From the NCBI GenBank assembly GCA_023957835.1, contig JAMLGP010000001.1, forward strand, positions 551,575 to 615,574: a DNA stretch of 64,000 nt. The letters run 5' to 3'. This document shows, one piece after another, positions 42,212-64,000 of the stretch. The position numbers and the translations under genes are program-made. The number at the start of each line of letters is the position of its first letter. Positions within the stretch are counted from its first letter, which is position 1. The notes beneath the pieces are model-generated. The model saw only the letters and a list, made by a program, of their open reading frames with translations, did no database searches and was not told the origin of the DNA. Source of the DNA: Homoserinimonas sp. (lineage in GTDB: Bacteria; Actinomycetota; Actinomycetes; Actinomycetales; Microbacteriaceae).

Positions 42212-42319
42212 GAGTTGGTCGCTACTGCGGCGGTCCGAGAACCCGTCCGTTTACTCGATTCTTGGCCGTCCTACGGGGTTCGCTGGAGGTCTGCGGGTGG
42301 TGCCGCCTACCTCATTGGT

Positions 42320-48890: not shown

Positions 48891-48923
48891 ATGGCGTAGG
48901 TGCGTAGGAGCGTCCTCGCGAGT

Positions 48924-50408
48924 TCAGCTCATCATTCGTCCGGTCGTGTCGAAGAGTTCCATCTCGCCCGGGTGCAGCTGGTGCTGGCAGACGAAGGAAC
49001 GGTCCTTGATGCGCCAGAGGCCTTGTCCTGCGCCGAGTCCGGGCAACAGTTTCTGCTCGGTGCCGGTAAGCCCGAGTGCCCCGGCCGTGACGCCGAGTTG
49101 GTCGGATTCCTGCCGGTAGATGATCCTGGTCTCGGCATTGGCCAGCAGGCTGTTTGCCAGAGCGCGCATTGCTGACCCTTGATCACCGACGTTCTCCAAA
49201 TCGGTGAGCTTGTGAAAGATCAGCATGTTCGCGATCCCGTAGTGTCGCGCAAGTCGCCAGTGAGCGTCCATCCGGCGCAATAGAGCTGGGTGGGACATCA
49301 GCCGCCACGCCTCGTCGTAGATACACCAGCGCTGACCACCGTTTGGATCGAGCAGCGCGGACTCCATCCACGCTGAGGAGCACGTCATGAGCACCGAAAT
49401 CAGCGTCGAGTTCTCCGTCACTCGTGACAAGTCCAGAGAGATCATCGGCAACGTGGGATCGAAGGTCACCGTTGACGGACCATCGAAGAGTCCGGCGAGG
49501 TCGCCAGCAACGAGCCGTCGGAGCGCATGCCCGACGAGACGTCCGTCTTCGGCAAGTCTGCCGTCGGGGTCTGCGTGAGTAGTTGGCGCAAGGATGTGCT
49601 CGACGACCATCGGAAGGATCGGCACGTCATTGCTGCGCATGACGTCGGTGAGGGCCGTGTCGATTGCCGTGTGTTCCAGCGGTGTCAAGGGACGATTGAG
49701 AACCGTCTCAGCCAGCGCACCGATGAGGTCGCGGCGACGAGACGCGACGGTGGACGCCCAGCTCTCATCGCTCATACCAGAGGGGCGGTAGCCCTCGTCG
49801 AGCGGGTTGAGTCGCGTCGCGAGCCCGTGCCCGAGGACGATTGCTCGGCCACCCACTGCTTCCGCGACTGCCGTGTGCTCACCTTTGGGGTCACCTGGCA
49901 CATACACGCGGCGCCCGAACGGGAGGGATCGCGTGTAGAGACTCTTCGCCAAGCTCGACTTGCCCGACCCCACGATGCCCGCGAGCACGAGATTCGGTGC
50001 AGTGATGATGCCACGGGCGTACAACACCCATGGGTCGTAGACGAAGGAGCCGCCCGAGTACAGGTCCTGCCCGACGAATACGCCATCGGAACCGAGCCCG
50101 CCCTCGGCGAGGAACGGGTACGCGCCCGCGAGAGTGGCTGAGGTGTCTTGATGTCGGGGCAGGCGAAATGGTCCTGGCGTACGTAGCTGAGCCGGTCCGG
50201 GCTCGCCAGCTGCGGGCAAATATGTAGTTCCCCGACGCTCGGCCATCTCGGCGAGGTACTTCGCGTGGGCTTCCCGCCGTTCAGCACGTTGCTGCTCGAT
50301 CTGCAGCTTTGATGCCGCCTTACGTCGCTGCGCGCGCACCCGGCGCTTCTCGGATGCCGGAGCCACGAGTACTGCGCTGTGGAGCTTCTCGGCATCGTCC
50401 CGGTTCAT
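48924..50408 (-). CDS. VirB4-like conjugation ATPase
   Basis: 494 residues. Walker A is AGIVGSGKSSLAKSL and Walker B-like RWCIYDEAWRLMSHP, with VPGDPKGEHTAVAEAVGG and a RAAD-like IIYRQESDQLGV arm after it. It powers assembly or work of the type IV channel. It lacks the N-terminal VirB4 domain of Proteobacteria; in this element the separate SCO6880-type protein may supply it. Its ATG overlaps the stop of the upstream gene (ATGA). Confidence 0.88.
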   Translation of the reverse strand: MNRDDAEKLHSAVLVAPASEKRRVRAQRRKAASKLQIEQQRAERREAHAKYLAEMAERRGTTYLPAAGEPGPAQLRTPGPFRLPRHQDTSATLAGAYPFLAEGGLGSDGVFVGQDLYSGGSFVYDPWVLYARGIITAPNLVLAGIVGSGKSSLAKSLYTRSLPFGRRVYVPGDPKGEHTAVAEAVGGRAIVLGHGLATRLNPLDEGYRPSGMSDESWASTVASRRRDLIGALAETVLNRPLTPLEHTAIDTALTDVMRSNDVPILPMVVEHILAPTTHADPDGRLAEDGRLVGHALRRLVAGDLAGLFDGPSTVTFDPTLPMISLDLSRVTENSTLISVLMTCSSAWMESALLDPNGGQRWCIYDEAWRLMSHPALLRRMDAHWRLARHYGIANMLIFHKLTDLENVGDQGSAMRALANSLLANAETRIIYRQESDQLGVTAGALGLTGTEQKLLPGLGAGQGLWRIKDRSFVCQHQLHPGEMELFDTTGRMMS

Positions 50409-51178
50409 AGCCCGAGCCCTCGCTGCTGCTTGAGTGCCGTGATGTTCGCTGGCTCGAACCAGGAGGAGCGTTGCTGGCGCCGCGTCGCTGGGCTGGTGTG
50501 GAGGCCACGCGACTCGTCTGGAAGTCCGTCTTCGAGGCTGACTGTGTGGCGTCGATACAGTGCGACATGGTCGAAACTGTGGCTGTACGTGAGGTGATAG
50601 TTACCCTCGCGCAACTCGTGCTCCAGCGCGCCGCTGGGCGGCTCGTCGTAGACGTACCCGTTCTCCATCGCTGCGCTCGTGGTCTCGTCTCCGAAATCCC
50701 AGTTCTTCAGGTGGTCCAGCCCTGCGGCAGGGCCGTCGGAGTCGATCATGTCGAGTACTTCGTCTGCCTCGTCGCCTTGCATGAAGACGACGTTGATCCA
50801 ACGAACAGTCGTGGTGGCGCGTGCGGCGGGTGAGTCGTGCCAAGCGACCTGGCTCGCGGCAGACGCTGCGGCGTTCAGTCGCTCTTCGGCTTGGTCGATG
50901 AACGTTGCCGACTGGTGCAACTCATCGGCGGCAGCGAGCGCGTCCGCTGATCCAACGGCATGGTTTCCGTGATCGTCAAAGGCGCGGGCATGGTTGTTGA
51001 CGTGAGCCGTAGCGAGTTGGTCGAGCACTTGCCTCAGCGACCGGACTCCCGACAGCAGATCGCCCAGGACACCGTACATATCCTGCAGGTTCTCGAAGTT
51101 GCGTGTCGCATGCGCGAGCCCGCGTAGCGCCTCGGATGCTTCACCGGCGTCGGCGCCGGGATCGTAAAACGTTGGCAT
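50405..51178 (-). CDS. Two-part element protein of unknown function
   Basis: About 257 residues from ATG 51178, five bases after AGGAGG; an ATG next to it (51181) sits too close to that site. The N-half is helical (ASEALRGLAHATRNFENLQ, VLDQLATAHVNNHARAF). The C-half begins RWINVVFMQGDEADEVLDMID and includes ENGYVYDEPPSGAL. I recall each half as a separate small protein in related elements, so this may be a gene fusion; that is from memory. It is divergent from the 51290 gene. Confidence 0.7.
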   Translation of the reverse strand: MPTFYDPGADAGEASEALRGLAHATRNFENLQDMYGVLGDLLSGVRSLRQVLDQLATAHVNNHARAFDDHGNHAVGSADALAAADELHQSATFIDQAEERLNAAASAASQVAWHDSPAARATTTVRWINVVFMQGDEADEVLDMIDSDGPAAGLDHLKNWDFGDETTSAAMENGYVYDEPPSGALEHELREGNYHLTYSHSFDHVALYRRHTVSLEDGLPDESRGLHTSPATRRQQRSSWFEPANITALKQQRGLGL

Positions 51179-51289
51179 CATGACCTCCTGGCTTTGCGAA
51201 TCGCTAGTAGCTGACAGGTGCACGAAAGAAACTCGGGTCGATGTCTGCGGTACGCAATACGCTTGAAGCATCCGATAGGGAGGGGCGTA

Positions 51290-52501
51290 ATGACTGACGA
51301 GATCGAGCTTGTAAGTGATGGCGATGGTCTCGCGGTCGTGGGCGAGCAGAATGCAGTTGATCGCTTCCTGGAGTCAATGGGACTGCTAGCAGTCTCGGAT
51401 GTTGTTCGCCCCGACAACTTGGCTCGGATACTGGGCGGCGGGAGTGAAGCGATTCGTGCGGCGTCGGATGCGGTGGAGAGATCTGGAAGGTACTTGAAGC
51501 TGACAAAAGAGTCGGCCGCGCGGGTGAAGGAACTCGGGTTGATGCCGACCAAGACCAAAGGCATCAGCCACGCGATGTTCGGAGAGCCAGGAGCAATCAA
51601 CAAGTGGGTGCAGGTCGAGAACGGACCTGGATCGTTGTTGACGAACCCTGCGCTGCTCTCCGGGCTCGGCGGGCTGATGACCCAGCTCGCGAAGCAAGCA
51701 GAAGCCAATGAACTCAAGGCGCTGCTAGTCAAGATCGACGAGAAGTTGGACGACGTTCGCCGAGCGCAGCGAGACGCAGTCCTGTCGAAACTGGATCGTG
51801 TAGTGCTCGCGATCAGAGAAGCTCAGATGATTGGCGAGCATGGCGGTAACAGGGAGACCGCCTGGAAGAAGATTGAGTCAGAGTCGGGCACAATCGCTGA
51901 AGTTCAGGGGTCTGCGTTGCGCGCTCTCGATGCTCTTGCGGACAAGGTCGAGGAAAAGAAGAAGATCGGCGAGATTGCGAGTGCGACGTACGAAGTCGAG
52001 TTCGAAGTGAGTATCTGGCTCGCAGTACTCGCTCGGTGTTTCCAGTTGCAGGATGAGTTTTCTGTGCTGGAGCTGGATCATGTTCTTGGCCTTGCCCCAG
52101 CAGACATTGATGGACATCGCATCGGGCTCGTGGCCGCTCAACAGGAGCGAAGAGACCTAATTGTTGGGAGGACGAGGAAGCTGATCCAGAGGATGGACAG
52201 CGCCGGATCGACAGCCGACTCAAACAAGCTTTTGCATGCCCGGCGAGCGCGAGCCGTGGTGGATTCCGTGAACACGACAGCACTGAGTATCGATGAGTTT
52301 CATGAACCACTTGGCCTCGATCCCGTACGAGCGCCGCTCAAGGCAACCCGCTGGCGTGACGCACTCCGTGACGGCGCGCAACTGAAGAATGCAGGTATTG
52401 AGGCTGGCAAGAAGGCGTTGACTGGTGCAGCGATAGCTGGGGGCACCGTTGTCGCCGCGGTGGCATCGGTCGCAGCCGCGAATAACGTCAACAAGAGTTG
52501 A
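51290..52501 (+). CDS. Unknown protein encoded against the transfer operon
   Basis: About 403 residues from ATG 51290, with GGGAGGGG nine bases upstream; the frame is open from 51218. No known domain is recognised. The start (VVGEQNAVDRFLESMG) leads to MFGEPGAINKWVQVENGPG, a helical and partly coiled-coil middle (KALLVKIDEKLDDVRRAQRDAV, in part) and AVLARCFQLQDEFSVLELD. The C-terminus has a Gly/Ala/Val-rich hydrophobic helix (AAIAGGTVVAAVASVAAA). It sits on the opposite strand, splitting the transfer genes between the two-part protein and SCO6880. I recall relatives in other actinobacteria as hypothetical proteins. A cargo, defence or exclusion role is inference only. Confidence 0.75.
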   Translation: MTDEIELVSDGDGLAVVGEQNAVDRFLESMGLLAVSDVVRPDNLARILGGGSEAIRAASDAVERSGRYLKLTKESAARVKELGLMPTKTKGISHAMFGEPGAINKWVQVENGPGSLLTNPALLSGLGGLMTQLAKQAEANELKALLVKIDEKLDDVRRAQRDAVLSKLDRVVLAIREAQMIGEHGGNRETAWKKIESESGTIAEVQGSALRALDALADKVEEKKKIGEIASATYEVEFEVSIWLAVLARCFQLQDEFSVLELDHVLGLAPADIDGHRIGLVAAQQERRDLIVGRTRKLIQRMDSAGSTADSNKLLHARRARAVVDSVNTTALSIDEFHEPLGLDPVRAPLKATRWRDALRDGAQLKNAGIEAGKKALTGAAIAGGTVVAAVASVAAANNVNKS

Positions 52502-52540
52502 ATCTGAGCAACGAATCTGCGTGATTCAGGAAAGCGCCGC

Positions 52541-54007
52541 TCACACGGTCCGGCACAGCGGCAACGCCGCCGCGGTGAACGCCTGGGCCTGCTGACCGAC
52601 AAGGAGACGTGTCTCGCAGGAGGCCTGGATCGCCGCCTGCTCAATGGCGGCAACCGCGGCATCGAGGTCGTCGGCTGTGCGCGCCGAGACAGAGACGAGA
52701 CCCGTGTAGCGGAGCACCCCGTGCCCGGCCGTGAGGTCGGCTTCCTGCTGCAGCACATCGTGAAACTCTGCTGCCTGCGACGCGTCTTCTATTTGACCGA
52801 TCCGCTGCCGTTGGGCCGCGTCAGAGATGTACTCGGTCTTCTTCTTTCGAATGTCGCGCGCCGCCTGATCGGAGCGCATCGGAGTGCAGAGCAGCGAGAA
52901 GGAGCGCTGGATGCCCGTCGACAGCAGCAGCGGCGCAAGGAACCCCGGGTAGACCATCGACCGAGGCCATTCCGAGATCCACAGCACTGCGTGAAATGCT
53001 GAGTCGGTGCGCAGCCGAGACCAAGACTCATTGACGGCCACGGGTCCGGCGGTCGCGAGCGACTGCCCAAGCTCACCGTGGCGTTCCAGGGTCGCCGCAA
53101 CAGCAGGGTCATACGCCGACCGCAGAATCACTGCGATTTCACCGGAGGTCAGCCAGGACGAGGGTGAGAGATCCGCCGAGCGCAACGCAGCAACGAGCGT
53201 GGACATCTCTTGGCGGAGCACAGCCGCCGCGCCGCGGATGCCGCCGCCAGCAGTGCGAATCTGACGCGAGGCAGCTCGCATATCAAGTGACAGCGACAGG
53301 GTGGTCGCATGGCGTTCACCTGCGGGTCCCGCGCGATCAATCAGCTCGGCGTATGTGGTCGAGGCCCAAGAGGCGTCGGCGACGCCGTGCGAGGCCCACC
53401 ACTCGGCAAGCCCGCTCCCGGAGTCAGGCAGCGTCCGCTCAAGCACCTGGAGCATCGAGATGCGACCCGACCGGCAGACCGTCGCGAGCACACGCCCCCA
53501 CGAACTGACTCGACGTTCTTGCTCGCCGGGGTCGAGGAGCACGAAAGCGGGATGTGAGACGGCAACGATGGCAGTGAGCGTCTCAGCCGTCGGATCGTGA
53601 ACCATTCCTGCGCCAGTCACCGGATCGTCGTATTCGCGAAGCCGGGCCATGTCGCCGGGAAGCGCGAGCGTGCCCGCTGGCCGAGGCTTCACGACTCGTC
53701 GACGGTAGAGGAGTTGCCCTGCGGTGGTCTTCCAAATCCACCAGAGGAACACGGGGATCCACTCGACGATTGCGCGGCCTGTAATCCGGATCCAGACCAC
53801 GGCGGCCGATGCGAGCCACACGGGTGACGAGAACGCAATCAGGATGCCGCCGCCAGCGTAGAACGCCCACACAAGCGTGCCGATACCGATGCCCAGGGCA
53901 ACAAGTTGTGAGAGCGACAGGCCGAGGAGCACGCCGCGGCGAGTCAGTCGCGAGAACTTGACCGGTACAAGCTCACCGGCGCGGTGAACGTCGTAATTCT
54001 TCGACAT
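52541..54007 (-). CDS. SCO6880-family type IV secretion protein
   Basis: About 488 residues from ATG 54007, nine bases after AAGGAG. Two transmembrane helices near residues 28-65 (LGLSLSQLVALGIGIGTLVW and the next) precede a large cytosolic part. The pattern KFSRLTRRGVLLGLS, RRRVVKPRPAGTLALPGD and FVLLDPGEQERRVSSWG is that of the SCO6880 family, a PrgI-like inner membrane start joined to a VirB4 N-domain-like part. It is thought to act with the separate ATPase encoded at 48924. It starts seven bases after the TrbL-like gene. Confidence 0.88.
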   Translation of the reverse strand: MSKNYDVHRAGELVPVKFSRLTRRGVLLGLSLSQLVALGIGIGTLVWAFYAGGGILIAFSSPVWLASAAVVWIRITGRAIVEWIPVFLWWIWKTTAGQLLYRRRVVKPRPAGTLALPGDMARLREYDDPVTGAGMVHDPTAETLTAIVAVSHPAFVLLDPGEQERRVSSWGRVLATVCRSGRISMLQVLERTLPDSGSGLAEWWASHGVADASWASTTYAELIDRAGPAGERHATTLSLSLDMRAASRQIRTAGGGIRGAAAVLRQEMSTLVAALRSADLSPSSWLTSGEIAVILRSAYDPAVAATLERHGELGQSLATAGPVAVNESWSRLRTDSAFHAVLWISEWPRSMVYPGFLAPLLLSTGIQRSFSLLCTPMRSDQAARDIRKKKTEYISDAAQRQRIGQIEDASQAAEFHDVLQQEADLTAGHGVLRYTGLVSVSARTADDLDAAVAAIEQAAIQASCETRLLVGQQAQAFTAAALPLCRTV

Positions 54008-54013
54008 GGTCAA

Positions 54014-55405
54014 TCACTCCTTGATGCTCGGCCGAGGTCGAGGGGTGCTCGTCGGGGCGGGGTCTGATCGTGGTGCTGGAGGCTGAGGCGCAGGGGGAGG
54101 CGTAGTGGCGGCAGGCGTTGCAGAGGGTGAGGACCCGACCTCACCCGCACCAGTCACAGCCGTTTCAGCCGTGCCACCAATCGCCTGCCCAACCTTCGGC
54201 CCCGCGGTGGCAGCGCCCTTGACGACTTCCGCTCCGATGATCACGGCTGCGGCAGGACCGGCCGCCGCGGCGGCACCAGCTCCCGCTCCTGCCCCGGCAC
54301 CAGCGCCTGCGCCTGCGCTCGCGCCCGTTCCCGCCTTGGCGCCTGCCGCGGCCCCGCCGCTGCTCGCACCCGCTGCGGGGATTGCGCCCCGGGCACTGCT
54401 CGACGCAGTTGACGTACCGGTGCCAGAGCCCGAACCGCCATCCAGAACCTTCTTTACGCCGTCGCTTTGCGGCTTCGACGGAACAGGCACGGGCCGATTG
54501 ACGGCGTTCTTCGCTTCCTGCTCGCTTCCCATCGCTTGGTAGAGATCGAAACCCAAGAACGAGATGAATCGGTAGACCATGTAGGGCGCGAACGCCGCGA
54601 TGAACAGCAGCACGATGCCAGCGATCGGTTCAGTGACGGCGGCCAGGTCAGCTTCGATCGGTGTTGACACCTGGGTGATAGCGATGAGGAACACGACAAC
54701 AAGGACGAGCTTTGACACGATGAGCGCAACGACGAACGCCACCCATTTGCCGATCCAGCCGCGAGTGACATCCCATGCGGCACCCGCGAACGCGACTGGG
54801 GCGAGGACGATTGCCACGAGCAGCAGAGCTTTGCGAATGAGGAGCGAGAACCAGACAATCGCGACCGCGCAGATCATGAGCCCGGCCAGGAAGATCGTGA
54901 TGATCGCACCGACGCCCGGTGCCGCGATATTGATCGTCGTGAGTCCCGCCGCGAGCAGCGCGATCTTGTCGCCCATCGTCCCAGTGGTCTCTCCTGCGGC
55001 CTGGACGATGCCGATGGAGAGTTGGTCGACGATCTCCAGCGCCGTCGCCGTCAGCGTGATGACAACAAATGAACCAAGTACAGCTTTGGCCGCGCCCAGT
55101 GCTGCGCGTGAGAGCGCCGCAGGTTCGCGTCGAATCAATCCCAGAATGAGCTGGAAGCAGAAGAAGAGCAACACGATGAAGACGCCGACACCGAAGAGCA
55201 GGTTGTAGACGTCGAGGTAGCCCTGTGACTGGACGTCGACGAAGGTGGTGCTGTCGAACACAGTCCACATGGCTTCGATGAGCCATCCTGCGGCTTGCCC
55301 CATCGTCGCGGCCAGCCAATCGAAAGGAGCAGACACCAGTGACGCGGCTCCTTCACCAACGGCATCGCACACGCTGGAGATGACGGGGATATCGCAGATA
55401 CTCAT
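54014..55405 (-). CDS. VirB6/TrbL-like polytopic channel protein
   Basis: About 463 residues from ATG 55405 (MSICDIPVI). At least six hydrophobic segments fill the first 300 residues, including VFIVLLFFCFQLILGLI, VLGSFVVITLTATALEI and a late IAGIVLLFIAAFAPYMVYRF. The tail is a low-complexity run of Ala-Gly and Pro, with a dozen Ala-Gly units, then a basic Pro-rich end. VirB6/TrbL proteins form part of the inner membrane pore. It lies 34 bases after the second pilin-like gene. Confidence 0.85.
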   Translation of the reverse strand: MSICDIPVISSVCDAVGEGAASLVSAPFDWLAATMGQAAGWLIEAMWTVFDSTTFVDVQSQGYLDVYNLLFGVGVFIVLLFFCFQLILGLIRREPAALSRAALGAAKAVLGSFVVITLTATALEIVDQLSIGIVQAAGETTGTMGDKIALLAAGLTTINIAAPGVGAIITIFLAGLMICAVAIVWFSLLIRKALLLVAIVLAPVAFAGAAWDVTRGWIGKWVAFVVALIVSKLVLVVVFLIAITQVSTPIEADLAAVTEPIAGIVLLFIAAFAPYMVYRFISFLGFDLYQAMGSEQEAKNAVNRPVPVPSKPQSDGVKKVLDGGSGSGTGTSTASSSARGAIPAAGASSGGAAAGAKAGTGASAGAGAGAGAGAGAGAAAAAGPAAAVIIGAEVVKGAATAGPKVGQAIGGTAETAVTGAGEVGSSPSATPAATTPPPAPQPPAPRSDPAPTSTPRPRPSIKE

Positions 55406-55439
55406 GACGTGGCCCTCGAAGCGGATGCCTGGGCGAACT

Positions 55440-55751
55440 TCACACCTGCTGCCCAACGTTCCAGAAGAAATTGATGAGCGTCACGGAAGCGCCGCAGATA
55501 ATCGCGGCGCCGCAGGAGACGAGCACGCCGAGCTTGCCGCGGGAGGCGAGGTGAGGGTTGGACGAGTTCGCTCCGAATCCCCACACGATCGCTGACACGA
55601 TCAAGGCGAGCACGGACAGGATCAGTCCGATCGTCATGACGGCACCTACAATGACGCGCAACTGCCCGATCCCGGGCAACCCCGAGTCATTGGGGGTGAC
55701 GTCAATGTTCATCGGCAGAGCAGCGGTGAGGGTCGTGATGAGTTCAAACAC
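55440..55751 (-). CDS. Small pilin-like membrane protein (DUF6112-like), copy 2
   Basis: 103 residues from GTG 55751, six bases after AAGGAG. Two transmembrane helices (VIVGAVMTIGLILSVLALIV and LGVLVSCGAAIICGASVTLI) flank a short polar loop with FGANSSNPHLASR. It is closely similar in layout to the 88-residue protein encoded next to it, so the two are tandem paralogues. They have the size and topology of VirB2-like subunits; the DUF6112 assignment is from memory. Confidence 0.8.
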   Translation of the reverse strand: MFELITTLTAALPMNIDVTPNDSGLPGIGQLRVIVGAVMTIGLILSVLALIVSAIVWGFGANSSNPHLASRGKLGVLVSCGAAIICGASVTLINFFWNVGQQV

Positions 55752-55835
55752 GGTGTCTCCTTGGCACGAGGACCGCCCGGGGCGGTGATGAAACATGGTC
55801 GAGAGCAAGGTGCGCACGTCGTCACGTGGAAGGGA

Positions 55836-55864
55836 CAGGCCTGGCGGGATTCCCGCCAGGCCTG
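55836..55864. other. 13-bp perfect hairpin between the two pilin-like genes
   Basis: CAGGCCTGGCGGG (55836-55848) pairs perfectly with 55852-55864 around ATT. It starts 16 bases after the stop of the first pilin-like gene and lies 85 bases before the start of the second. No T-run follows, so it may stabilise the upstream message or attenuate downstream genes. Confidence 0.6.
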
Positions 55865-55879
55865 ATGCAAGCAGTAGCT

Positions 55880-56146
55880 CTACAACTGGCCGCCGACACC
55901 GATGAGCCAGTTCACCCAGGTCACGGCGCCACCGGCGAGGATCGCGGCGCCAAGCGCCACAAAGACTCCGGTCCGCGCCTTCGCAACGACCGCGGGGTTG
56001 CCCGTCGAAGAAGCTAAGGCCCAAGCGATGGCGCTGACGATGATCATGAGGACCGCCACGACCAGGATGACCGTCAGCATCGCGCCGATCACGATTGCGA
56101 GGTCCCCGATGCCACTGAGGCTGCCGAAGTCAGGGAACACATTCAC
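55880..56146 (-). CDS. Small pilin-like membrane protein (DUF6112-like), copy 1
   Basis: 88 residues from GTG 56146, eight bases after GGAGGTGG and overlapping the stop of the M23 gene (GTGA). Two helices (VIGAMLTVILVVAVLMIIV and VFVALGAAILAGGAVTWV) and the polar loop ASSTGNPAVVAKA match the paralogue downstream. The longer frame from 56173 is rejected because it would overlap the M23 gene without a site. A pilus subunit role is inferred from size, topology and place. Confidence 0.78.
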   Translation of the reverse strand: MNVFPDFGSLSGIGDLAIVIGAMLTVILVVAVLMIIVSAIAWALASSTGNPAVVAKARTGVFVALGAAILAGGAVTWVNWLIGVGGQL

Positions 56147-57336
56147 GAGAGTCCACCTCCAAGCGCTGAACATCCGGCGCCCGCGGTGGCTTCGGGAAGA
56201 TCGGCGGCGTCGTGGTCATTGAGCCACTTGGCAGCATCCACAGCTTCGCCACTCGTTCCGCCTGGTCGGACTTCGAAGTGCAGGTGTGGGCCGGTTGATC
56301 GTCCCGAGGAGCCTACGTCGCCGATGTGTTGTCCGGCGATCACCCGCTCGCCGACGGAAACATGGATGCCGTGCTGCCACATGTGCGCATACGCGGTCGC
56401 AATAGTCGTGCTTCCGATGCGGTGCTCGATCACGATGAGACCTCCGTAGCCACCTGAAAACTCGGCGACCGTGACGATCCCATCAGCGACGGCGAGGATC
56501 GGTGTTCCGTCTGGAGCGGCGAAGTCGGTGCCGGTATGGAAGGCGCGTTCGCCGGTGAGTGGATCGATGCGCGGACCGAAGTCGCTGGTATGAACCCAGG
56601 TGCCTTCGGGTAGCGGGAACACTACGCGCGACGCCTCCGCCACAGCCGCGACCGTTGTCGGGCGTGCTGCGGAGGCTGTCATTGATGCCGACGTGCCACT
56701 CGTGAGGGCGACGAGGATCGTCTCGGCGACGGGTTCGTATTTGTTGTACCGGTCGGGGTAGGCGGACACTTCCACTGCCTGCGCGACTTCGCCTTTGCCC
56801 ATGCTCTGCCAGCCCGGGATGTCGAGTAGGCCACGCGGCGAGGGAAAGTTGGGGCCAGCCGGCCCACCGAAGAATGCTTTGGCTTGATACTCGGGGTCCA
56901 TCAACTCCGCGACCGAGCCCCAGCCTGATTGCGGTCGCATCTGGAACAGGCCGAGCGAGTCGTGGTCGGAGCCGTTCCCGTCGTTCGGGTAGTTGCCGGA
57001 TTCGGGATAGGCGCCTGTGTTCGCCAGTTGCCGAAGCATCGACTCGGTCAGCGCCGCCATCAGCGCGATTTGGATGGCGTCTCTTGTGACTCCTTCGATT
57101 CCCGATCCGACAGTGATGATCGTCGCCGCGTGCGTGAGCTGTTGTTTGTCCAGTGTGATCGTCTCGCCATTGGCGGTTGTGACCAGGAGAGAATCCGGCA
57201 CCTTTCCCACGGTCAACCCCGACGAGGCGAGGCAAACGATCGCTGTGGGGTTCACCACCAGTCCGACAGTGACGAGTCCGAGTGTCGGTGCGAGCAGTAT
57301 CAAGGAGACCACTGCGATCGCGAGCTTTTTCATCAT
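56143..57336 (-). CDS. Exported M23-family peptidase with lysozyme-like region
   Basis: 397 residues. A basic start and hydrophobic helix (LAIAVVSLILLAPTLGLVTVGLVV) export or anchor it. The middle (TESMLRQLANTG, DSDGLGLFQMRPQSGWG-like) resembles the transglycosylase fold of VirB1-like proteins; the Glu in LTESML could be catalytic. The C-terminal M23 domain shows the metal motifs HTGTDFAAPDGTP and HLHFEVRPGG. It would open the cell wall for channel assembly. It follows the VirB8-like gene by 12 bases. Confidence 0.9.
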   Translation of the reverse strand: MMKKLAIAVVSLILLAPTLGLVTVGLVVNPTAIVCLASSGLTVGKVPDSLLVTTANGETITLDKQQLTHAATIITVGSGIEGVTRDAIQIALMAALTESMLRQLANTGAYPESGNYPNDGNGSDHDSLGLFQMRPQSGWGSVAELMDPEYQAKAFFGGPAGPNFPSPRGLLDIPGWQSMGKGEVAQAVEVSAYPDRYNKYEPVAETILVALTSGTSASMTASAARPTTVAAVAEASRVVFPLPEGTWVHTSDFGPRIDPLTGERAFHTGTDFAAPDGTPILAVADGIVTVAEFSGGYGGLIVIEHRIGSTTIATAYAHMWQHGIHVSVGERVIAGQHIGDVGSSGRSTGPHLHFEVRPGGTSGEAVDAAKWLNDHDAADLPEATAGAGCSALGGGLS

Positions 57337-57348
57337 GGGCCCGCCGTC

Positions 57349-58029
57349 CTAACGCAGCGGATTGTTCACTTGCGAGAGCCGCAGGACGTGGCAAGGGTCG
57401 TCGGCTGGGCACGCGATGAAGATCGTAAACGCGACCGGCTGCTCTGCGGTGACTGGGTCGCCGTTCCACACGCCGGATCGCTGGCGGATGCCCTCGATCG
57501 TGTATGCCGCGGCGCCGTCGGGGAGCTGCCCTGGGCGAGCCTGCGCGAGCGCATCAGCCCAGGCATCCGGCACGAACACTGAGGTGATCTCCAACCGCTG
57601 CGTCGTTGCGTACGGTCGCAGCTGCGCCCACGCGCTCTGCGTGGGCAGGTAGGTGGCGATGTCGGCGGCGAGTCCCGACTGTTCGAAGCCGGTCGGGTCG
57701 GCGACGTTGAGGATGACGGCGGTGTAGTCGAGCGGCAGGAACCCACTGCCGGTGTCCCAGGTGAACAGTGCCTCGGCGACGCTGCGCGCGAACGCCTCGG
57801 CGTCGGTGGTCTGTGGGAGCGACGGGATCCGAGGTGGTGAGGTCGGCTCACGAGAAGGTTCTGCGCTCGGAGCAGCACTCGACAATGGAGGATCAGTTGA
57901 CTCGGTGGGTTGCTCGGATCCGATGACGAGTCCGTAGATGCCGATGCCAGCGACAAGGATCGCCAGCGACAGCGACGTGATGAGGGCGATCAGAGTGCGG
58001 CGTGCGCGGGGAGCGGTAGGAAGCTTCAT
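57349..58029 (-). CDS. VirB8/TcpC-like conjugation protein
   Basis: 226 residues. One N-terminal transmembrane helix (TLIALITSLSLAILVAGIGIYGLVI) is followed by a Ser/Pro-rich linker and an extracytoplasmic domain of about 140 residues (AFARSVAEALFTWDTGSGFLP, TSVFVPDAWADAL). The fold pattern of NTF2-like VirB8/TcpC is plausible, with weak sequence support. It lies 12 bases before the M23 gene and 30 after the ParB-like gene. Confidence 0.72.
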   Translation of the reverse strand: MKLPTAPRARRTLIALITSLSLAILVAGIGIYGLVIGSEQPTESTDPPLSSAAPSAEPSREPTSPPRIPSLPQTTDAEAFARSVAEALFTWDTGSGFLPLDYTAVILNVADPTGFEQSGLAADIATYLPTQSAWAQLRPYATTQRLEITSVFVPDAWADALAQARPGQLPDGAAAYTIEGIRQRSGVWNGDPVTAEQPVAFTIFIACPADDPCHVLRLSQVNNPLR

Positions 58030-58059
58030 GCGGGACAGGTGCGCCGCATCAGTCTCGGC

Positions 58060-59076
58060 TCAGAGTGCGCGAAGGTTCCCCACCTGGGTCGCCGACTCGG
58101 CGTCTGCACTATCGAGGTCGCGCGCGGCACGGAGTTGCTCAGCGACCTGAACGGTGGCTTCAACAACGTGCAGGAACATCTCGACCTCGGCGTCACTCAG
58201 ATGGCGGGCCAGTTCATCGACGTCGAAGTGCCGCCACCAGCCGTCGAGTTCCGTCCACGTGACGACGAATGCGCGAATTGGCCACGGCTCGTCGCCGTCG
58301 ACGCGCGAAGTCAGCGCGCTTGGCGAAGGTCGCCGTTTGGGCTTCGGAGCGTTCTTGATGCGTGCGAGCGCTTCCTCAGCCAGCTTCGCCACATCCACAA
58401 CGTCACCATCGGGTTGTGCCGAGGTCACGAGCTGCCGAGCACGCTGGAAGCTTGGGTGCACGGGAGCGCCTGAGCCGATGAGTTCCAGCTCGGCCGCGAT
58501 GCCTTCTCGCACGGAGTCGGGCTGACTTTCGTCTTCCGTCAACTGCTGCAGATAGTTGATCTTCTCCAGCGTCGTGTGCGAGGCGCCCTCCGGGATCATC
58601 GCCGCAGCCTGCTCGCGCGCGTCTCCGACCGAGTCTGACGGTGCCGCAAATTTTGCGGCACCGTCATTTCCCGGCTGATTCTCGGTGCTGAATCGTGATG
58701 CTTCTTGGCGACGGGCGGCATCCTCAGCCATCAATGTCTTGATCTCCCGGTACAACGCTGCATTCTCCAGCTGGGTGAGCGACTTGTGCAGCGCGTTGTC
58801 ATCCTGCTCAGCAAGGAGGTGCGCGAGTTCTCCCGAGATCCCTGAGCGCACCCAGACTTTGACGTGCATCCATCCCAGTTGCTTGATCGCGGCCAGCCGA
58901 CGGGCCCCGCACACGAGATTGCCCTCCGGCGTCACAGTGATTGGTTGCAGCAATCCATCCCGTTCGATCGAGGCGGCGAGGAGAGCGAGTTCCCCGAGAT
59001 CCTTGCGGTGACGATGGCCAACGTGGATTGAGTCGACAGCTCGTTCCAGCTCGATGTGCCCGTCGTGGGTGCTCAT
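58060..59076 (-). CDS. ParB N-terminal (nuclease-like) domain protein
   Basis: About 338 residues from ATG 59076, near GGGAGCGG and overlapping the stop of the upstream gene (ATGA). The ParB/Srx-like domain is clear: RKDLGELALLAASIERDGLLQPITV, then NLVCGARRLAAIKQLG. It binds CTP in true ParB proteins; plasmid relatives act in regulation or partition. There is no ParA gene beside it. The C-terminal half is helical and charged. It may aid element stability or gene control. Confidence 0.85.
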   Translation of the reverse strand: MSTHDGHIELERAVDSIHVGHRHRKDLGELALLAASIERDGLLQPITVTPEGNLVCGARRLAAIKQLGWMHVKVWVRSGISGELAHLLAEQDDNALHKSLTQLENAALYREIKTLMAEDAARRQEASRFSTENQPGNDGAAKFAAPSDSVGDAREQAAAMIPEGASHTTLEKINYLQQLTEDESQPDSVREGIAAELELIGSGAPVHPSFQRARQLVTSAQPDGDVVDVAKLAEEALARIKNAPKPKRRPSPSALTSRVDGDEPWPIRAFVVTWTELDGWWRHFDVDELARHLSDAEVEMFLHVVEATVQVAEQLRAARDLDSADAESATQVGNLRAL

Positions 59077-59927
59077 CGTCCGCTCCCATGACTGGGTGCG
59101 CACGTCACGATGATCGACACGAGGTCGTCATCGAGCAGCAGAGCAGGAAGAGTCTCGCCGACAAGGATGCGAAGGAGGATGCCGCGGCCGGTGCTCGTTG
59201 CGCGATATGCGGGGTTGGGATGTCCGAGTAGTGCGTGCAGCAGGGCCGACCACGCGTCGCCGGGCAGATCGAGGAGCGCGCGAGCATGCTTGTCACGGCG
59301 CAACACTTCGTAGGCGCTCTGCCGAGACCCGGCCCGTGCGATCGCGCCACACACGTGCTCGATCGCGGCGCGGGTCGTGCTCTCCGGCCAGCCCAGCGTC
59401 GCGAACAACGCGATTGACACTTCAATCGCCTGTTTGGCGGTGCCTACCTCGTCATTCTTGTTGGCGTCTTCAGCCTCAGGTTCGAGGTACTTGTCGACCA
59501 CATGGAATGCGGGATGGTAGTCGGCGAGAGGATTCTCTCTGTCAGCGAATCGTTCTGGGTCATGGAATGCGGAGACGTGCGGGCGGCGAGCTTGGTGCGT
59601 GGCGCAAAGTAGCCCTTGCCCACGCTCTTCGGCGATGCAGGTGATCTGCACGCCGCGAGTGACGACGGCCCAGGGGTCGTCAGCTTCGCGGGCCGAACGA
59701 GTTCGCATCACATCGAAAGCTGCGGATGCGGCCTCCCACGGGTCGAGCCCGTGTTTTCGAGCGAGCGCCCCATACTTCTCGGCAGCAAACGTGGCGAGTT
59801 CCGCGGCTACGCGGTCGTGTTTCCATGCGTGGGCACCCGACTGGTGCAACCGGTGCAGCAGGGCGCGCAATCCTTCGCTCGTGGTGAAGTCCTCGCGAGG
59901 GTGCGACGGGGAATAGTGAGTGGTCAT
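59073..59927 (-). CDS. Conserved element protein of unknown function
   Basis: About 284 residues from ATG 59927, close after GGAGGTGC. The N-half has a sigma-factor-like helical stretch (EKYGALARKHGLDPWEAAS, then VMRTRSAREADDPWAVVTRGV). The C-half is helical (TAKQAIEVSIALFATLGWPESTT, DAWSALLHALLGHPNPAYR). No known active site. It precedes the ParB-like gene with a coupled start, so it may be a DNA-binding partner. Confidence 0.75.
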   Translation of the reverse strand: MTTHYSPSHPREDFTTSEGLRALLHRLHQSGAHAWKHDRVAAELATFAAEKYGALARKHGLDPWEAASAAFDVMRTRSAREADDPWAVVTRGVQITCIAEERGQGLLCATHQARRPHVSAFHDPERFADRENPLADYHPAFHVVDKYLEPEAEDANKNDEVGTAKQAIEVSIALFATLGWPESTTRAAIEHVCGAIARAGSRQSAYEVLRRDKHARALLDLPGDAWSALLHALLGHPNPAYRATSTGRGILLRILVGETLPALLLDDDLVSIIVTCAPSHGSGR

Positions 59928-60023
59928 GACAAGAGCACCTCCTGCCATGCAGGTGCGCACCCGCTCCCCAGTGGGAAGGTTGGATGCAGATGAGGTACCC
60001 ATGACGATGTCCGCTCTTCACGA

Positions 60024-60395
60024 TCAGGCGGTGCCGATCGAGCTGCGCCCCGCATCCGGTCGCGTGGCACCACGCCCAAACGCTGACAGGGGCGGGAGAT
60101 GACGTGCACGTTCGGCGATGCGCCGGGTGCCGTCCTGTGCGGCTGAGCGCGTGCGCCGATGCAGCTCGGACTGGAAGTTGATCCCCGCACCGGCCACTCG
60201 TGCGCTGCTGCGAGCCACCAGGTCGGTCGGGCGTACCCATTCAACACCGCGCCCTCGGTATGTCGAAGGATCACGCATCGAACTCCGCTGCTGATTGCGA
60301 AGCCTCATCGACTCGACGGCTTCGTGCCTCGTCGTAACGTCGATGGCTTCCGCATCGATGGGGCGGTTACCGACGTCGGCCGTGTTCTCGTTCAT
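60024..60395 (-). CDS. Conserved element protein, 123 residues
   Basis: Soluble and basic. The core RDPSTYRGRGVEWVRPTDLVARS and AGINFQSELHRRTR recurs in related elements to my memory. Its ATG at 60395 overlaps the stop of the DUF2637 gene (ATGA), supporting that it is real rather than a shadow frame. Function unknown. Confidence 0.65.
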   Translation of the reverse strand: MNENTADVGNRPIDAEAIDVTTRHEAVESMRLRNQQRSSMRDPSTYRGRGVEWVRPTDLVARSSARVAGAGINFQSELHRRTRSAAQDGTRRIAERARHLPPLSAFGRGATRPDAGRSSIGTA

Positions 60396-60997
60396 GTTGA
60401 GTCCTCTGTTTCGTCGGGTGCGGAACGCGCCCGCTCATGTTCAGTAGGTGCGCTCGCGCACCAGCGCCCGACGGTAGAAGGATGCACGGCGAGTTCGCGG
60501 GCGATGCGCTTGTTCGACCAGCCTTTTTCACGCAAGACGGTCGCTTGTTCCTGGGGAGAGAGAAGCGCGACATCGGCGTGCTCCTCGGCCGCCTCAGGCG
60601 TGCGCACGAGCAGCACAGTCAAGTGCGTGATTGCCAACAGCACCACCGGTGGAACGGCTGCGACAGCCGCGGCAAGTACACTTGGCACGTCGGCATCGGC
60701 GGCGACCACCGCATGGATCGAGTTTGCCGTCACCGAAACGGCTGCGGCTCCCGCAAGCAGCGTCCACGGATACCAGGCGGAACGTGACCCGGCGAGGGCA
60801 ACAACAGCAACGGTCGAAACGACGATGACGCCGTCGACAATGAGCGGCCACGCCCATGCCTGCCCCGCACCGATGCCCGAGCGGGCAGCGAGATCCGCCA
60901 GGGAGGTAAACGACAGCCAAAACGCTCCCGCAGCGATGAAGACTGTGCCCGCGACCGCCGTGATGATCGCCGATCGGCGCGCCCGAATGCTCCTCAT
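60392..60997 (-). CDS. DUF2637 membrane protein with C-terminal helix-turn-helix
   Basis: 201 residues. Four or so hydrophobic helices (IITAVAGTVFIAAGAFWLSF, WPLIVDGVIVVSTVAVVAL) make the DUF2637 part found in plasmid and element proteins of Actinobacteria, often called SpdA-like. The C-terminal WSNKRIARELAVHPSTVGRW is a helix-turn-helix. It is coupled on both sides by ATGA overlaps. A role in spread or regulation at the membrane is inference. Confidence 0.83.
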   Translation of the reverse strand: MRSIRARRSAIITAVAGTVFIAAGAFWLSFTSLADLAARSGIGAGQAWAWPLIVDGVIVVSTVAVVALAGSRSAWYPWTLLAGAAAVSVTANSIHAVVAADADVPSVLAAAVAAVPPVVLLAITHLTVLLVRTPEAAEEHADVALLSPQEQATVLREKGWSNKRIARELAVHPSTVGRWCASAPTEHERARSAPDETEDST

Positions 60998-61917
60998 GCC
61001 AAGGCCCGAGAATCCGTGACCGGTCGCGGTCGGTGCGGCGGCGTCATGGGGGCGCCCAATGGTAATCGTTGAGCTGACCGGCCATGCACGGATCGATAGG
61101 CCGAGCGGACGGTCGTCGTCACTTCACGCTCACTGAGCCCAGCAGTCGCACCCGCGGCCGTGAGAGCGTCGAGCGCCGCTCCTGTGGGGATGTCTTTCTC
61201 CGCCATTTTGCAGGCTGCCCAGAAGACGCCGTGGTTCCGCTCGCCCTCTTGGAGGCGGGATACCCAACTCGCCAATCGCGTGAGATCAGCGGGCGCCATA
61301 TCTGTGGCTGCATCGCGTGGGTTCGCGGACGGCCGTGGAGGATCCAAGAGATCACGAAGGCGCTGTGCGTCGAGCGGATGTCCGCTTCCGTGAGCGAGCC
61401 GCAACGTCTTGTACCGGCGCGCTTCACCGTCAATGGTCCGCACCGAGGGCGGCAGGATGATGTAGCCGCCGTCGCCACGAAAGTCGATTCCCGCTCGCGC
61501 CGATTGCCAAGACGTCTGATGCGCATTGCCCCTCGCAGAGAAGTACAGGTGCAGGCCGCGCGATGGTGTTTCCACCGCTGCGACCCAGCCATTCACCAGC
61601 CCTTCGCGTCGCGCACGCTCCAGCGCCGCGTATCCGTCGACAGCGCCGTGAACGTCGACATCGACGACGACGAGGCCCGAGGCTGCGCCCGTCGGCATCC
61701 CAATGTTTGCCTTGGGCATCGCCGTCCACCAACGATGCACCAGGTCCCTGTCGGCGCTCGCGGCGTGAAATCCTCCCGCGACAGCGGGGCGCTTCCCGCC
61801 AGCGGCACATGGAAACACCGGGATGCCGCTCGCTGCCAACGCGAGTGCGCTTCGACCGAGTGCTGCATCGTGGCCCATTCGATCGAGGACCTGAACGAAT
61901 GAATCTGCCGCGCCCAT
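60994..61917 (-). CDS. Bifunctional DNA primase/polymerase
   Basis: About 307 residues from ATG 61917, whose A overlaps the preceding stop (TGATG). The prim-pol fold is clear: LALAASGIPVFPCAAGGKRPAV, GMPTGAASGLVVVDVDVHG (metal Asp pair) and GLHLYFSARGNAHQT, with GIDFRGDGGYIILPPS. The enzyme starts and extends DNA strands during element replication. A helical C-terminal tail follows; a helicase domain is lacking. Confidence 0.88.
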   Translation of the reverse strand: MGAADSFVQVLDRMGHDAALGRSALALAASGIPVFPCAAGGKRPAVAGGFHAASADRDLVHRWWTAMPKANIGMPTGAASGLVVVDVDVHGAVDGYAALERARREGLVNGWVAAVETPSRGLHLYFSARGNAHQTSWQSARAGIDFRGDGGYIILPPSVRTIDGEARRYKTLRLAHGSGHPLDAQRLRDLLDPPRPSANPRDAATDMAPADLTRLASWVSRLQEGERNHGVFWAACKMAEKDIPTGAALDALTAAGATAGLSEREVTTTVRSAYRSVHGRSAQRLPLGAPMTPPHRPRPVTDSRALA

Positions 61918-62999
61918 CACAGCCCCCGCGAATCGGTCGTAGCCGCGTGCTTCGAGCTGCTCGCGATGGACGGCACAGTGCCCGTGCGCTTCGAGGGGGC
62001 GGAGTTGGTACGCCCGGCGGTGCGATCGAGCCCAGGGGGAGTGCCATCGCCGATCATCTGCGTGTCCAGCTGCTCGAGAATTTTCATAGCGGTGGCGCGC
62101 ACTCGTTCTCCGGTCGCGCGCACGATCTCCGCGGGTTCCTGGCCGTCGGCGTTTGCGGCCCACGAGGTGACATAGGGGATCGTGTAGTCGCTGGTATCCA
62201 TCCCGTGCGCGGCGCCAATCATGAGCGCGACGGACTCGGCCTCCACCTCGCCGACACCCCGGTGCAGCCGCGCGGCATCTTGATCAGGGCCATGCATGAG
62301 CACATGGGCGAGTTCGTGAGCAAGCGTCTTCACGCGCGCGGCCGGATCCATGTTCTCGCGGACCTTGACCGTCTTCTCCGTGTAGTCGGTGACACCGTTC
62401 GCGCCGTGGATCAGGCCCTCGTGCTCTACATTGAGGAGCTGAAATCCTGCGGCCTTGATTCGCTCGGCGAGTCCCGCCCAGAGGCCCTCCGGTGCTTCGC
62501 CCTTCAACAACGTCGGTGCAGGTGGAGTCGGCAGGGTATCGCCGGAAGTCTGCGCCGCGTCCCACACGTAGGCGGGGCGAACGCCGATCATCTTCGAGCG
62601 GACTTCCTCGCTCGGTCGTGGCTTCTCGAATCGGTTGAGCCGCCGCCACGACGTCGGATCCGCAGGCGTCGGCGACGCGAATCGACCGGTCACCGGAGCA
62701 AGAATCTGATACCCGGGCTGCCCCTTCTCGACCTGGCGGCCCAACTGCTGCCACTGCTTGTACCCAGCCACATATGACGGCATCGGCTCGGACACGAGTC
62801 CCGCCTCGAATACGGCGGCGTGCTGCATCCAGATGAGCAGGGTGTTGTTGAACGAGCGGCTGCGGAACCTGGCTGCGAACCGGAGCGCAGCCGCCCAATC
62901 CTCACCGGACACCAGCTTGTCGACTGCTTCGGTCAGCTTCTCGTGCAACTCATCGAGCTTCGCTTCGCGGGTGGCTCGGCGTTCATCTGTCGACACCAT
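61917..62999 (-). CDS. ArdC-like antirestriction protein with metallopeptidase motif
   Basis: About 360 residues from ATG 62999, seven bases after AGGAGG. The N-terminal ssDNA-binding domain has FRSRSFNNTLLIWMQHAA and YKQWQQLGRQVEKGQPGYQI. The later HELAHVLMHGP is the zinc motif of the M78-like peptidase part, with a Glu downstream in EVEAESVALMIGAAHGM. ArdC protects incoming DNA from restriction. It is the first gene of the leftward block and is divergent from the XRE-like regulator. Confidence 0.87.
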   Translation of the reverse strand: MVSTDERRATREAKLDELHEKLTEAVDKLVSGEDWAAALRFAARFRSRSFNNTLLIWMQHAAVFEAGLVSEPMPSYVAGYKQWQQLGRQVEKGQPGYQILAPVTGRFASPTPADPTSWRRLNRFEKPRPSEEVRSKMIGVRPAYVWDAAQTSGDTLPTPPAPTLLKGEAPEGLWAGLAERIKAAGFQLLNVEHEGLIHGANGVTDYTEKTVKVRENMDPAARVKTLAHELAHVLMHGPDQDAARLHRGVGEVEAESVALMIGAAHGMDTSDYTIPYVTSWAANADGQEPAEIVRATGERVRATAMKILEQLDTQMIGDGTPPGLDRTAGRTNSAPSKRTGTVPSIASSSKHAATTDSRGL

Positions 63000-63133
63000 C
63001 AGGTGCCCTCCTCTCCGGCGCGCCACGTCGCAGGAGTGCGTGGCGATACACCGGTGAGGTGGGCGAGCGACTGCACGAACTCTGCGGATGCGCCTGCCTG
63101 TGCCAACGGCACGACTTAGCGACTCGTTTCGGC

Positions 63134-63164
63134 GCGAGTGTGGTTGACCGCGAGTGTGGTTGAC
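63134..63164 (+). repeat. 15-base direct repeat, period 16
   Basis: GCGAGTGTGGTTGAC at 63134-63148 is repeated exactly at 63150-63164. Each copy ends in TTGAC, the second continuing as TTGACA, a possible -35 for a rightward promoter, but no good -10 follows. It may be a binding site. Confidence 0.5.
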
Positions 63165-63239
63165 AAGGCGTACGAAGCCAGAATCTGGGCATGGTTCACC
63201 TCCCTGGGAGTGATCGAAGGGTCCAGAGGCCTCCGGGCG

Positions 63240-63345
63240 TTGAGCATGCTCAAAACGTGCGGGGCTTCGTTTCTAACACCGACCGTTGAGCATGCGCAAC
63301 CCTTGATTTGTTCATGCTCAACAGCTATATTGAGCATGCGTAACG
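63240..63345. promoter_or_regulatory. Array of four palindromic operator-like sites
   Basis: Site 1 is the perfect palindrome TTGAGCATGCTCAA (63241-63254). Site 2 is GTTGAGCATGCGCAAC (63286-63301). Site 3 is TGTTCATGCTCAAC (63310-63323). Site 4 is ATTGAGCATGCGTAAC (63330-63345). Centres are about 46, 23 and 21 bases apart, close to two or four helical turns. They lie just before the XRE-like regulator gene and are probably its operators. Confidence 0.7.
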
Positions 63346-63402: not shown

Positions 63403-63834
63403 ATGACCGACGACGAGGGCGCAACTGCGGCTGCGGATCTTGCGAAGCGCCTGCGGCTGTTGCTCGATGTTGCGATCGCCGAAACCGGCGCCGAGCCTAC
63501 CTACTCGCAGATTGCGGCATTTCTCCGGGATCGCGGCACCAACCTGTCGAGGTCGCGTTGGACGTACATGGTCAATGGGCACCGGTACGTTCAGGACCCC
63601 GCCGTCTTCGCCGGGCTTGCAGCGTTCTTCGATGTCGACACTGACTTCTTGATCGGCGCGAACGACGCCGTAGTTCCCGAGAAGGTCAGCGCACAGCTTG
63701 ATCTCGTGCGCTCCATGCGTGCGGCGAAGGTGAAGTCGTACGCGGCGCGCACTCTTGGAGATATCTCACCGAAGGCACTCCAAGCCATCAGCAAGTTCTT
63801 GGATGAGGAAATGACGCATACAGACCAGCAATAA
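63403..63834 (+). CDS. XRE-like transcriptional regulator
   Basis: 143 residues. An N-terminal helix-turn-helix (AEPTYSQIAAFLRDRGTNLSRSRWTYMVNG, in part TYSQIAAFLRD) is followed by a two-helix part typical of SR1-like phage regulators with VFAGLAAFFDVDTDFLIG, and a helical C-terminus. GAAGGAGG precedes ATG 63403. It is divergent from the transfer block and next to four palindromes, so it likely represses transfer genes and itself, as in ICE control modules. The next gene (partial) may encode its partner. Confidence 0.85.
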   Translation: MTDDEGATAAADLAKRLRLLLDVAIAETGAEPTYSQIAAFLRDRGTNLSRSRWTYMVNGHRYVQDPAVFAGLAAFFDVDTDFLIGANDAVVPEKVSAQLDLVRSMRAAKVKSYAARTLGDISPKALQAISKFLDEEMTHTDQQ

Positions 63835-63895
63835 CGGCGTCGCTCATGTAGCCGAGTCGATGCCGCGAAGTGCCCTCGAAGGAGGTGAGCGCAAC

Positions 63896-64000
63896 GTGAA
63901 TATCGAACAGGTCGTTCAAGCGGCCGTCTCGGATCTTGCCCTCGGCAGTGCGTTCACCTTCGACGATCTCTACGGTGTCGTGCAACAACGCAGGAGGCGC
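63896..64000 (+). CDS. Unknown protein, N-terminal part (cut by window edge)
   Basis: Frame open from GTG 63896 to the window end (35 codons), with AAGGAGG eight bases upstream. The visible sequence VNIEQVVQAAVSDLALGSAFTF and FDDLYGVVQQRRRR is not enough to name. In similar control modules an ImmA/IrrE-like peptidase gene follows the regulator, which would make this a candidate. Confidence 0.6.
   Translation, partial: MNIEQVVQAAVSDLALGSAFTFDDLYGVVQQRRRR

What the first reader, a model, noticed from the sequence alone, without database searches (positions are those of the whole stretch)
63240..63345. Four palindromic operators before the element's XRE-like regulator, with a half-site before xis
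Consensus GTTGAGCATGCGCAAC repeats four times at near-helical spacing, and the half-site GTTGAGCATG recurs at 42202-42211, about 110 bases before xis. This would let one regulator control both transfer genes and excision from the two ends of the element.
Basis: partly seen in the sequence, partly recalled or inferred. Interest (0 to 1): 0.7.

Follow-up and report, generated by a model that had tools for sequence, protein, structure and literature searches.

The report
Switch controlling a mobile DNA element
A run of four near-identical DNA 'landing pads' sits between the gene-transfer genes and the regulator gene of a 55-kb mobile element; the same arrangement recurs in about 75 other actinobacterial loci, so it looks like the element's on/off switch, but the claimed extra site that would also control the element's excision does not hold up.

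Summary
The four palindromes are real (63239-63254, 63285-63300, 63307-63322, 63329-63344; spacing 46, 22, 22) and beyond chance. They lie between the leftward transfer operon and the rightward EspR-like regulator, in the middle of a ~54.6-kb ICE at the 3' end of glnA, not at its end. The array recurs in nearly all of 79 related loci. In 50 relatives' genomes the perfect palindrome occurs in 47, almost always once. Distant plasmid homologues carry altered CATG-centred palindromes before the regulator operon and/or before transfer genes. Sites 2-4 cover the regulator promoter; sites 1-2 bracket a conserved promoter-like motif facing the transfer operon. The half-site before xis is rejected: its second half is absent, a core base is lost in 6 of 7 elements with the same integrase, another exact half-site lies inside brxC, and relatives show no perfect palindrome at a second gene region. 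In the 80 loci the regulator is followed by an IrrE/ImmA-fold protease (80), a seven-helix MAB_1171c membrane protein (78) and usually a hydrolase (74). Best explanation: an ImmR/ImmA-like, protease-relieved repressor built on an EspR-type protein, controlling transfer and itself. No DNA binding, cleavage or inducing signal was shown.

The parts
63239..63254 (.). Operator site 1, GTTGAGCATGCTCAAA (perfect 14-bp palindrome TTGAGCATGCTCAA)
   Evidence: the same perfect palindrome in most of 79 relatives; would lie at about +10 to +25 of the inferred leftward transcript
63285..63300 (.). Operator site 2, GTTGAGCATGCGCAAC; the right half is nearly always GCGCAA in relatives
63307..63322 (.). Operator site 3, TTTGTTCATGCTCAAC, inside the -35/-10 spacer of the regulator promoter
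63329..63344 (.). Operator site 4, ATTGAGCATGCGTAAC, overlapping the end of the regulator -10 and the start region
63303..63331 (+). Putative sigma-70 promoter of the regulator operon: TTGATT-17-TATATT
   Evidence: 1 found, 0.1 expected; -35 and TA of the -10 conserved in 28 aligned upstream regions
63270..63299 (-). Putative leftward promoter of the transfer operon: TTGCGC (63299-63294), 18 nt, TAGAAA (63275-63270) with extended TG; the conserved motif reads about GTTCTAACAC on the + strand
   Evidence: conserved between sites 1 and 2 in 28 aligned upstream regions; promoter reading is inference (-35 is poor, and the consensus scan did not report it)
63403..63834 (+). EspR-like regulator (143 aa), the probable operator-binding protein
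   Evidence: profile hmmsearch to EspR structures E=1.1e-13; phmmer E=0.005
63860..64000 (+). Start of the IrrE/ImmA-like metalloprotease gene (166 aa, HELSH...GH); runs past the window end (L007:5435-5935)
62983..63192 (-). Small leader ORF (69 aa) with a strong Shine-Dalgarno; start conserved, sequence not
   Evidence: coding status uncertain
61917..63026 (-). ArdC-like gene, first recognisable gene of the leftward transfer operon
   Evidence: Pfam ArdcN 8.6e-9; opposite the regulator in 64 of 80 loci
46579..62163 (-). Leftward operon: PrimPol, ParB-like, M23 peptidase, SCO6881-family protein, TraG/VirD4 coupling protein
42320..42544 (+). xis (HTH_17-like, 74 aa)
42544..43866 (+). Tyrosine integrase (440 aa)
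   Evidence: 87-97% relatives in 7 of 50 genomes
42105..42131 (.). attL repeat, 27 bp, 93% identical to attR at the 3' end of glnA (L008:18236-18262)
42202..42211 (+).

Best explanation
The array is the central operator of an integrative and conjugative element, bound by the adjacent EspR-like protein. Dimers occupy four CATG-centred palindromes across the 210-bp divergent promoter region. Sites 2-4 cover the promoter of the regulator operon (autorepression); sites 1-2 cover the promoter of the leftward transfer operon, so the element is kept silent. The regulator is probably co-transcribed with an IrrE/ImmA-fold metalloprotease, a seven-helix MAB_1171c membrane protein and an alpha/beta hydrolase. 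By analogy with ImmR/ImmA, a signal through the membrane protein and/or hydrolase would activate the protease, which inactivates the repressor and switches on transfer. Shown by computation: the array, its position, its conservation, its tie to this regulator family, the synteny and the protease fold. Inferred: binding, repression rather than activation, the leftward promoter, cleavage and signal. Excision is not controlled through this operator; xis/int must be governed another way.
For: Array conserved at fixed positions in nearly all of 79 loci with upstream sequence, 67-97% identical regulators, many genera. Perfect palindrome in 47 of 50 relatives' genomes, normally once. In the own genome the four further one-mismatch hits all lie inside ORFs. 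Conserved regulator promoter with site 3 in the spacer and site 4 on the -10, and a conserved TG-TAGAA motif between sites 1 and 2 facing the transfer operon. 19 plasmid loci with 33-46% identical regulators hold 21 CATG palindromes (4.1 expected), 19 intergenic, several before the regulator operon and before the transfer genes. Recognition-helix residue 51 goes with the base next to CATG: Ser with G, Ala/Gly/Thr with A; Arthrobacter D5-1 shows Ser+G outside the own clade. EspR similarity 1.1e-13. Synteny: ImmA-like in 80 of 80, MAB_1171c 78, hydrolase 74. HE..H invariant in 21 aligned proteins; IrrE/PprI/CapP fold Z 7.7-8.3. ImmR/ImmA mechanism: PMC6540685.
Against: No binding, footprint, transcript or cleavage data. 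The leftward promoter is weak on sequence (TTGCGC, TAGAAA) and was not reported by the consensus scan. Only some of the 19 plasmid loci show a CATG palindrome at the module. The residue-base match rests on two Ser lineages, and one origin is not excluded by the tree. Repression versus activation cannot be read from DNA; mycobacterial EspR positively controls ESX-1 (PMC3315491). The protease has no Pfam or NCBIfam hit and its Foldseek match alone was weak.
Confidence: 0.7

Rival explanations
1. One regulator controls both transfer and excision: it binds the array and, through the half-site GTTGAGCATG, the region before xis.
For: Exact 10-bp half-site 109 bp before xis; 0.075 expected per element in Markov shuffles.
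Against: Second half absent. A 99%-invariant T is lost in 5 of 7 same-integrase elements and another core base in a sixth. A further exact half-site lies inside brxC, and four more elsewhere in the chromosome. The perfect palindrome occurs essentially once per relative genome, at the regulator.
Confidence: 0.07
2. The array serves only autoregulation of the regulator-protease-MAB_1171c-hydrolase operon; the transfer operon is driven independently and is not repressed through it.
For: Sites 3 and 4 lie on the regulator promoter, which is the clearer of the two. In ICEs without a recognisable ardC the array is still there (L117, L119-L125, L127).
Against: Site 1 and the TG-TAGAA motif are conserved on the transfer side, away from the regulator promoter. 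In plasmids where the regulator is last in its operon, a second palindrome sits between it and the transfer genes (L032, L034, L165) or before a separate transfer-side gene (L164).
Confidence: 0.2
3. The regulator is an activator: bound sites recruit polymerase to one or both promoters, as EspR is thought to act on ESX-1 genes.
For: EspR positively controls ESX-1 genes (PMC3315491); the sites are close to promoters.
Against: Sites 3 and 4 overlap the spacer and -10, the usual place for a repressor; a linked IrrE/ImmA-like protease fits relief of repression.
Confidence: 0.15
4. The regulator mainly controls the defence cargo (BREX) downstream.
For: BREX genes follow the module on the same strand in this element; BrxA within 10 kb in 29 of 80 loci.
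Against: 51 of 80 loci show no BrxA in the DNA held (up to 10 kb) although array and module are intact; conjugative plasmids carry the module next to transfer genes.
Confidence: 0.06

Closest known systems
ImmR/ImmA switch of ICEBs1 (Bacillus subtilis; review PMC6540685)
   Same: Small HTH repressor encoded beside an ImmA-type HExxH metalloprotease; governs a conjugative element; operators near the repressor's own promoter (ICEBs1 operators from general knowledge).
   Different: Repressor is EspR-type; the operon adds a seven-helix MAB_1171c protein and a hydrolase; the divergent target is the transfer operon (ArdC/PrimPol first), whereas ImmR represses the excisionase and downstream genes. 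No RapI/PhrI was looked for.
EspR of Mycobacterium tuberculosis (PMC3315491)
   Same: Similar along most of the chain (profile E 1.1e-13); binds upstream of its own gene.
   Different: EspR is a nucleoid-associated protein with hundreds of sites and the motif TTTGC[TC][GA]; here a strict 14-bp CATG palindrome occurs at one place per genome.
CapH/CapP and IrrE/PprI HTH-protease pairs
   Same: The protease model matches IrrE, PprI and CapP best (Z 8.3, 7.9, 7.7). A protease cleaving a linked HTH repressor: from general knowledge.
   Different: Those pairs act in defence or DNA-damage response; here the module sits on conjugative elements, with a membrane protein gene between protease and hydrolase.
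MAB_1171c family putative transporter (NCBIfam NF042915; Pfam DUF6545)
   Same: E 4.2e-28 over residues 6-303.
   Different: 98.4 bits, just under the cut-off of 100 (100.1 with its neighbours); the model looks like a 7TM receptor bundle rather than a transporter, a weak inference.

Membership tests
EspR family | Sequence similarity along the EspR chain (N-terminal HTH, C-terminal dimer domain) | tested here: met
   hmmsearch with A3: EspR 3r1f E=1.1e-13, profile positions 9-122 of 144
EspR family | EspR motif TTTGC[TC][GA] and many genomic sites (nucleoid-associated behaviour) | tested here: not met
   Sites are TTGAGCATGCTCAA; one site cluster per genome. So an EspR-type relative, not EspR itself
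ImmR/ImmA-type switch | Repressor gene adjacent to an ImmA/IrrE metalloprotease gene | tested here: met
   80 of 80 loci; HE..H...H invariant in 21; IrrE/PprI/CapP top the structure list
ImmR/ImmA-type switch | Repressor operators in a divergent promoter region next to its own gene | tested here: met
   Array between start codons 63192 (-) and 63403 (+), conserved; binding itself not tested
ImmR/ImmA-type switch | Repressor directly controls xis | tested here: not met
   No full site outside the regulator region; half-site not conserved
ImmR/ImmA-type switch | Protease cleaves the repressor on a signal | not testable with these tools
   Needs biochemistry
MAB_1171c family (NF042915) | Score above the curated cut-off of 100 bits | tested here: inconclusive
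   98.4 bits; 100.1 with its neighbours in the frame
Integrative and conjugative element | Integrase/xis, att direct repeats, T4SS coupling protein and transfer genes | tested here: met
   excision and transfer themselves not tested

The most novel reading that the evidence does not exclude
The EspR-like repressor, IrrE/ImmA protease, seven-helix MAB_1171c protein and linked enzyme form an undescribed actinobacterial signalling system: a receptor-like membrane protein senses a molecule made or removed by the enzyme and activates the protease, which clears the repressor from its CATG operators. It would control conjugation of ICEs and plasmids, and a related set would act on chromosomes of large-genome actinobacteria.
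Probability: 0.3. Interest if true: 0.8.

Novelty: new variant of a known kind. Interest (0 to 1): 0.55.

Why it matters
It gives a concrete operator, promoter layout and cognate regulator for an ICE family found across several actinobacterial families, and a testable hypothesis for what turns transfer on. It also links MAB_1171c proteins, annotated only as 'putative transporter', to a protease-repressor pair: the library held one paper naming MAB_1171c and none naming DUF6545. It suggests that an EspR-type protein can act as a site-specific regulator rather than a nucleoid protein.

Tried and rejected
No relatives in phages or viral contigs. No Pfam/NCBIfam hit for the regulator or the protease; PDB profile search with the protease alignment found nothing. 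Control of xis via the half-site: rejected. The small ORF 62983-63192 as a conserved protein: not supported, as its sequence drifts freely and it reads in frame into ArdC in many relatives. Plasmids with SRTRWSYL regulators (L158, L160, L166, L167) show no matching palindrome near the module.

Full report
Observation. The four palindromes are present at 63239-63254, 63285-63300, 63307-63322 and 63329-63344. With three mismatches allowed, 0.78 hits were expected and 6 found (both strands), all in this array. Sites 2-4 are 22 bp apart, the first gap is 46 bp. A PWM built from relatives scores the four sites 20-30 bits; the next best place in the element scores 11. In the 2.07-Mb genome four further one-mismatch places exist and all lie inside ORFs.

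Element. The window cuts the element. A 27-bp, 93% identical repeat at 42105-42131 and at the 3' end of glnA (L008:18236-18262), together with 24-bp repeats inside both ends that look like integrase arm sites, gives a ~54.6-kb element. That L008:18241-19665 is glnA is read from its sequence and C-terminal residues, not from a family search. The left part holds xis, int and the leftward transfer operon with a TraG/VirD4-type coupling protein; the right part holds the regulator operon and a BREX defence system. The array and regulator lie about 21 kb inside, not at an end.

Conservation. A scan of 84,980 species genomes gave 80 loci with 67-97% identical regulators. Of 79 with upstream sequence, most carry four sites at about -165, -120, -98 and -76 from the start codon; a few of the most divergent carry one to three recognisable ones. 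In 50 of these genomes the exact palindrome is present in 47 and almost always once; the four genomes with two have either a second site within one array or a second place. In 28 aligned upstream regions the conserved blocks are the four sites, the regulator promoter (TTGATT, 17 nt, TANNTT; also found by the promoter scan) and about GTTCTAACAC between sites 1 and 2, which on the other strand reads TGT-TAGAAC, an extended -10 facing the transfer operon. Site 3 sits in the spacer and site 4 on the -10 of the regulator promoter; sites 2 and 1 bracket the leftward motif.

Link to the regulator. The protein is a relative of EspR (E 1.1e-13 with a profile). Among 19 plasmid loci with 33-46% identical regulators, CATG-centred palindromes number 21 against 4.1 expected, 19 of them intergenic. 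Not all belong to this operator type, but TTGGACATGTCTAA, TTGAACATGTTCAA, TGAAACATGTTTCA and CTTGAGCATGCTCAAG lie before the regulator operon, between regulator and transfer genes, or both. The base next to CATG follows residue 51 of the recognition helix (Ser with G; Ala, Gly, Thr with A). Arthrobacter D5-1, outside the own clade, has both Ser and G; this supports but does not prove direct contact, as a single origin is not excluded.

Half-site. GTTGAGCATG at 42202 exists, but the second half is absent. In seven genomes with the same integrase (87-97%), one near-identical copy keeps the half-site, while the others read GGTGAGCATG (3), GCTGAGCATG (2) and GTTAAGCATG (1). The T lost in five of them is 99% invariant in true sites. 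About a quarter of the 10-mers around it are more conserved, so the stretch is not special. The own genome holds six exact half-sites outside the array, one of them inside brxC. Only 7 of 50 relatives share this integrase, so the regulatory unit travels independently of the xis/int unit, which also argues against a fixed link.

Module and mechanism. The regulator is followed by a 166-aa protein (80 of 80 loci) with an HE..H...H motif invariant in 21 aligned members. Its AlphaFold model (mean pLDDT 80) matches IrrE, PprI and CapP at Z 7.7-8.3, with unrelated proteases from 4.7 down. Next come a MAB_1171c protein (78 of 80) and an alpha/beta hydrolase (74 of 80). The MAB_1171c model (pLDDT 80) is a seven-helix bundle whose fifty listed matches are all 7TM receptors (Z 12.5-14.2); for helical bundles such Z may mean only a common arrangement, so this is a lead. 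In large genomes of the same class, MAB_1171c genes are also beside HExxH proteins (most of 16 loci) and some beside EspR-like proteins (5). By analogy with ICEBs1 ImmR/ImmA (PMC6540685), the simplest reading is a repressor cleared by the protease after a signal.

Known or new. The protease-relieved repressor of a conjugative element is known. New, as far as the held papers show, are the EspR-type repressor with a strict palindromic array, the conserved four-site layout over the divergent transfer and regulator promoters, and the addition of MAB_1171c and an enzyme. The open-access library held one paper naming MAB_1171c, on Mycobacterium abscessus drug resistance, and none naming DUF6545; subscription papers were not searched.

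Noticed in passing
L007:8241-19094 and L008 (window coordinates about 66666-77519 and on): The element carries BREX genes (BrxA, BrxB, BrxC, PglX, PglZ) right after the regulator module; BrxA lies within 10 kb of the module in 29 of 80 relatives, so this spot looks like a defence-cargo site.
   Followed up: partly
42105-42131 and L008:18236-18262: The element integrates at the 3' end of glnA (glutamine synthetase); several same-integrase relatives show the same glnA-like sequence at their left end.
   Followed up: partly
42233-42256 and L008:18098-18121: 24-bp, 92% identical repeat GTCCGAGAACCCGTCCGTTTACTC inside both ends of the element, possibly integrase arm sites.
   Followed up: no
L007:5932-6951 (P0005): MAB_1171c/DUF6545 protein, annotated as putative transporter, is modelled as a seven-helix bundle; its fifty listed PDB matches are all 7TM receptors.
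   Followed up: partly
L033 (Arthrobacter sp. ERGS1:01 plasmid) 3079-6420: A related regulator sits close to an integrase and HTH genes, with the palindrome ATTGAACATGTTCAAT in between; in this element direct control of excision is conceivable.
   Followed up: no
62983-63192: Conserved strong Shine-Dalgarno and start codon before ardC; in many relatives the frame runs into ArdC (N-terminal extension), here it ends as a 69-aa leader ORF.
   Followed up: partly
63133-63164: Perfect tandem 16-bp repeat CGCGAGTGTGGTTGAC in the transfer-side leader.
   Followed up: no
L087 and L123 (Microbacterium sp. BR1): Two arrays with their regulators on one contig, about 230 kb apart, so two related elements can coexist in a chromosome.
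   Followed up: no
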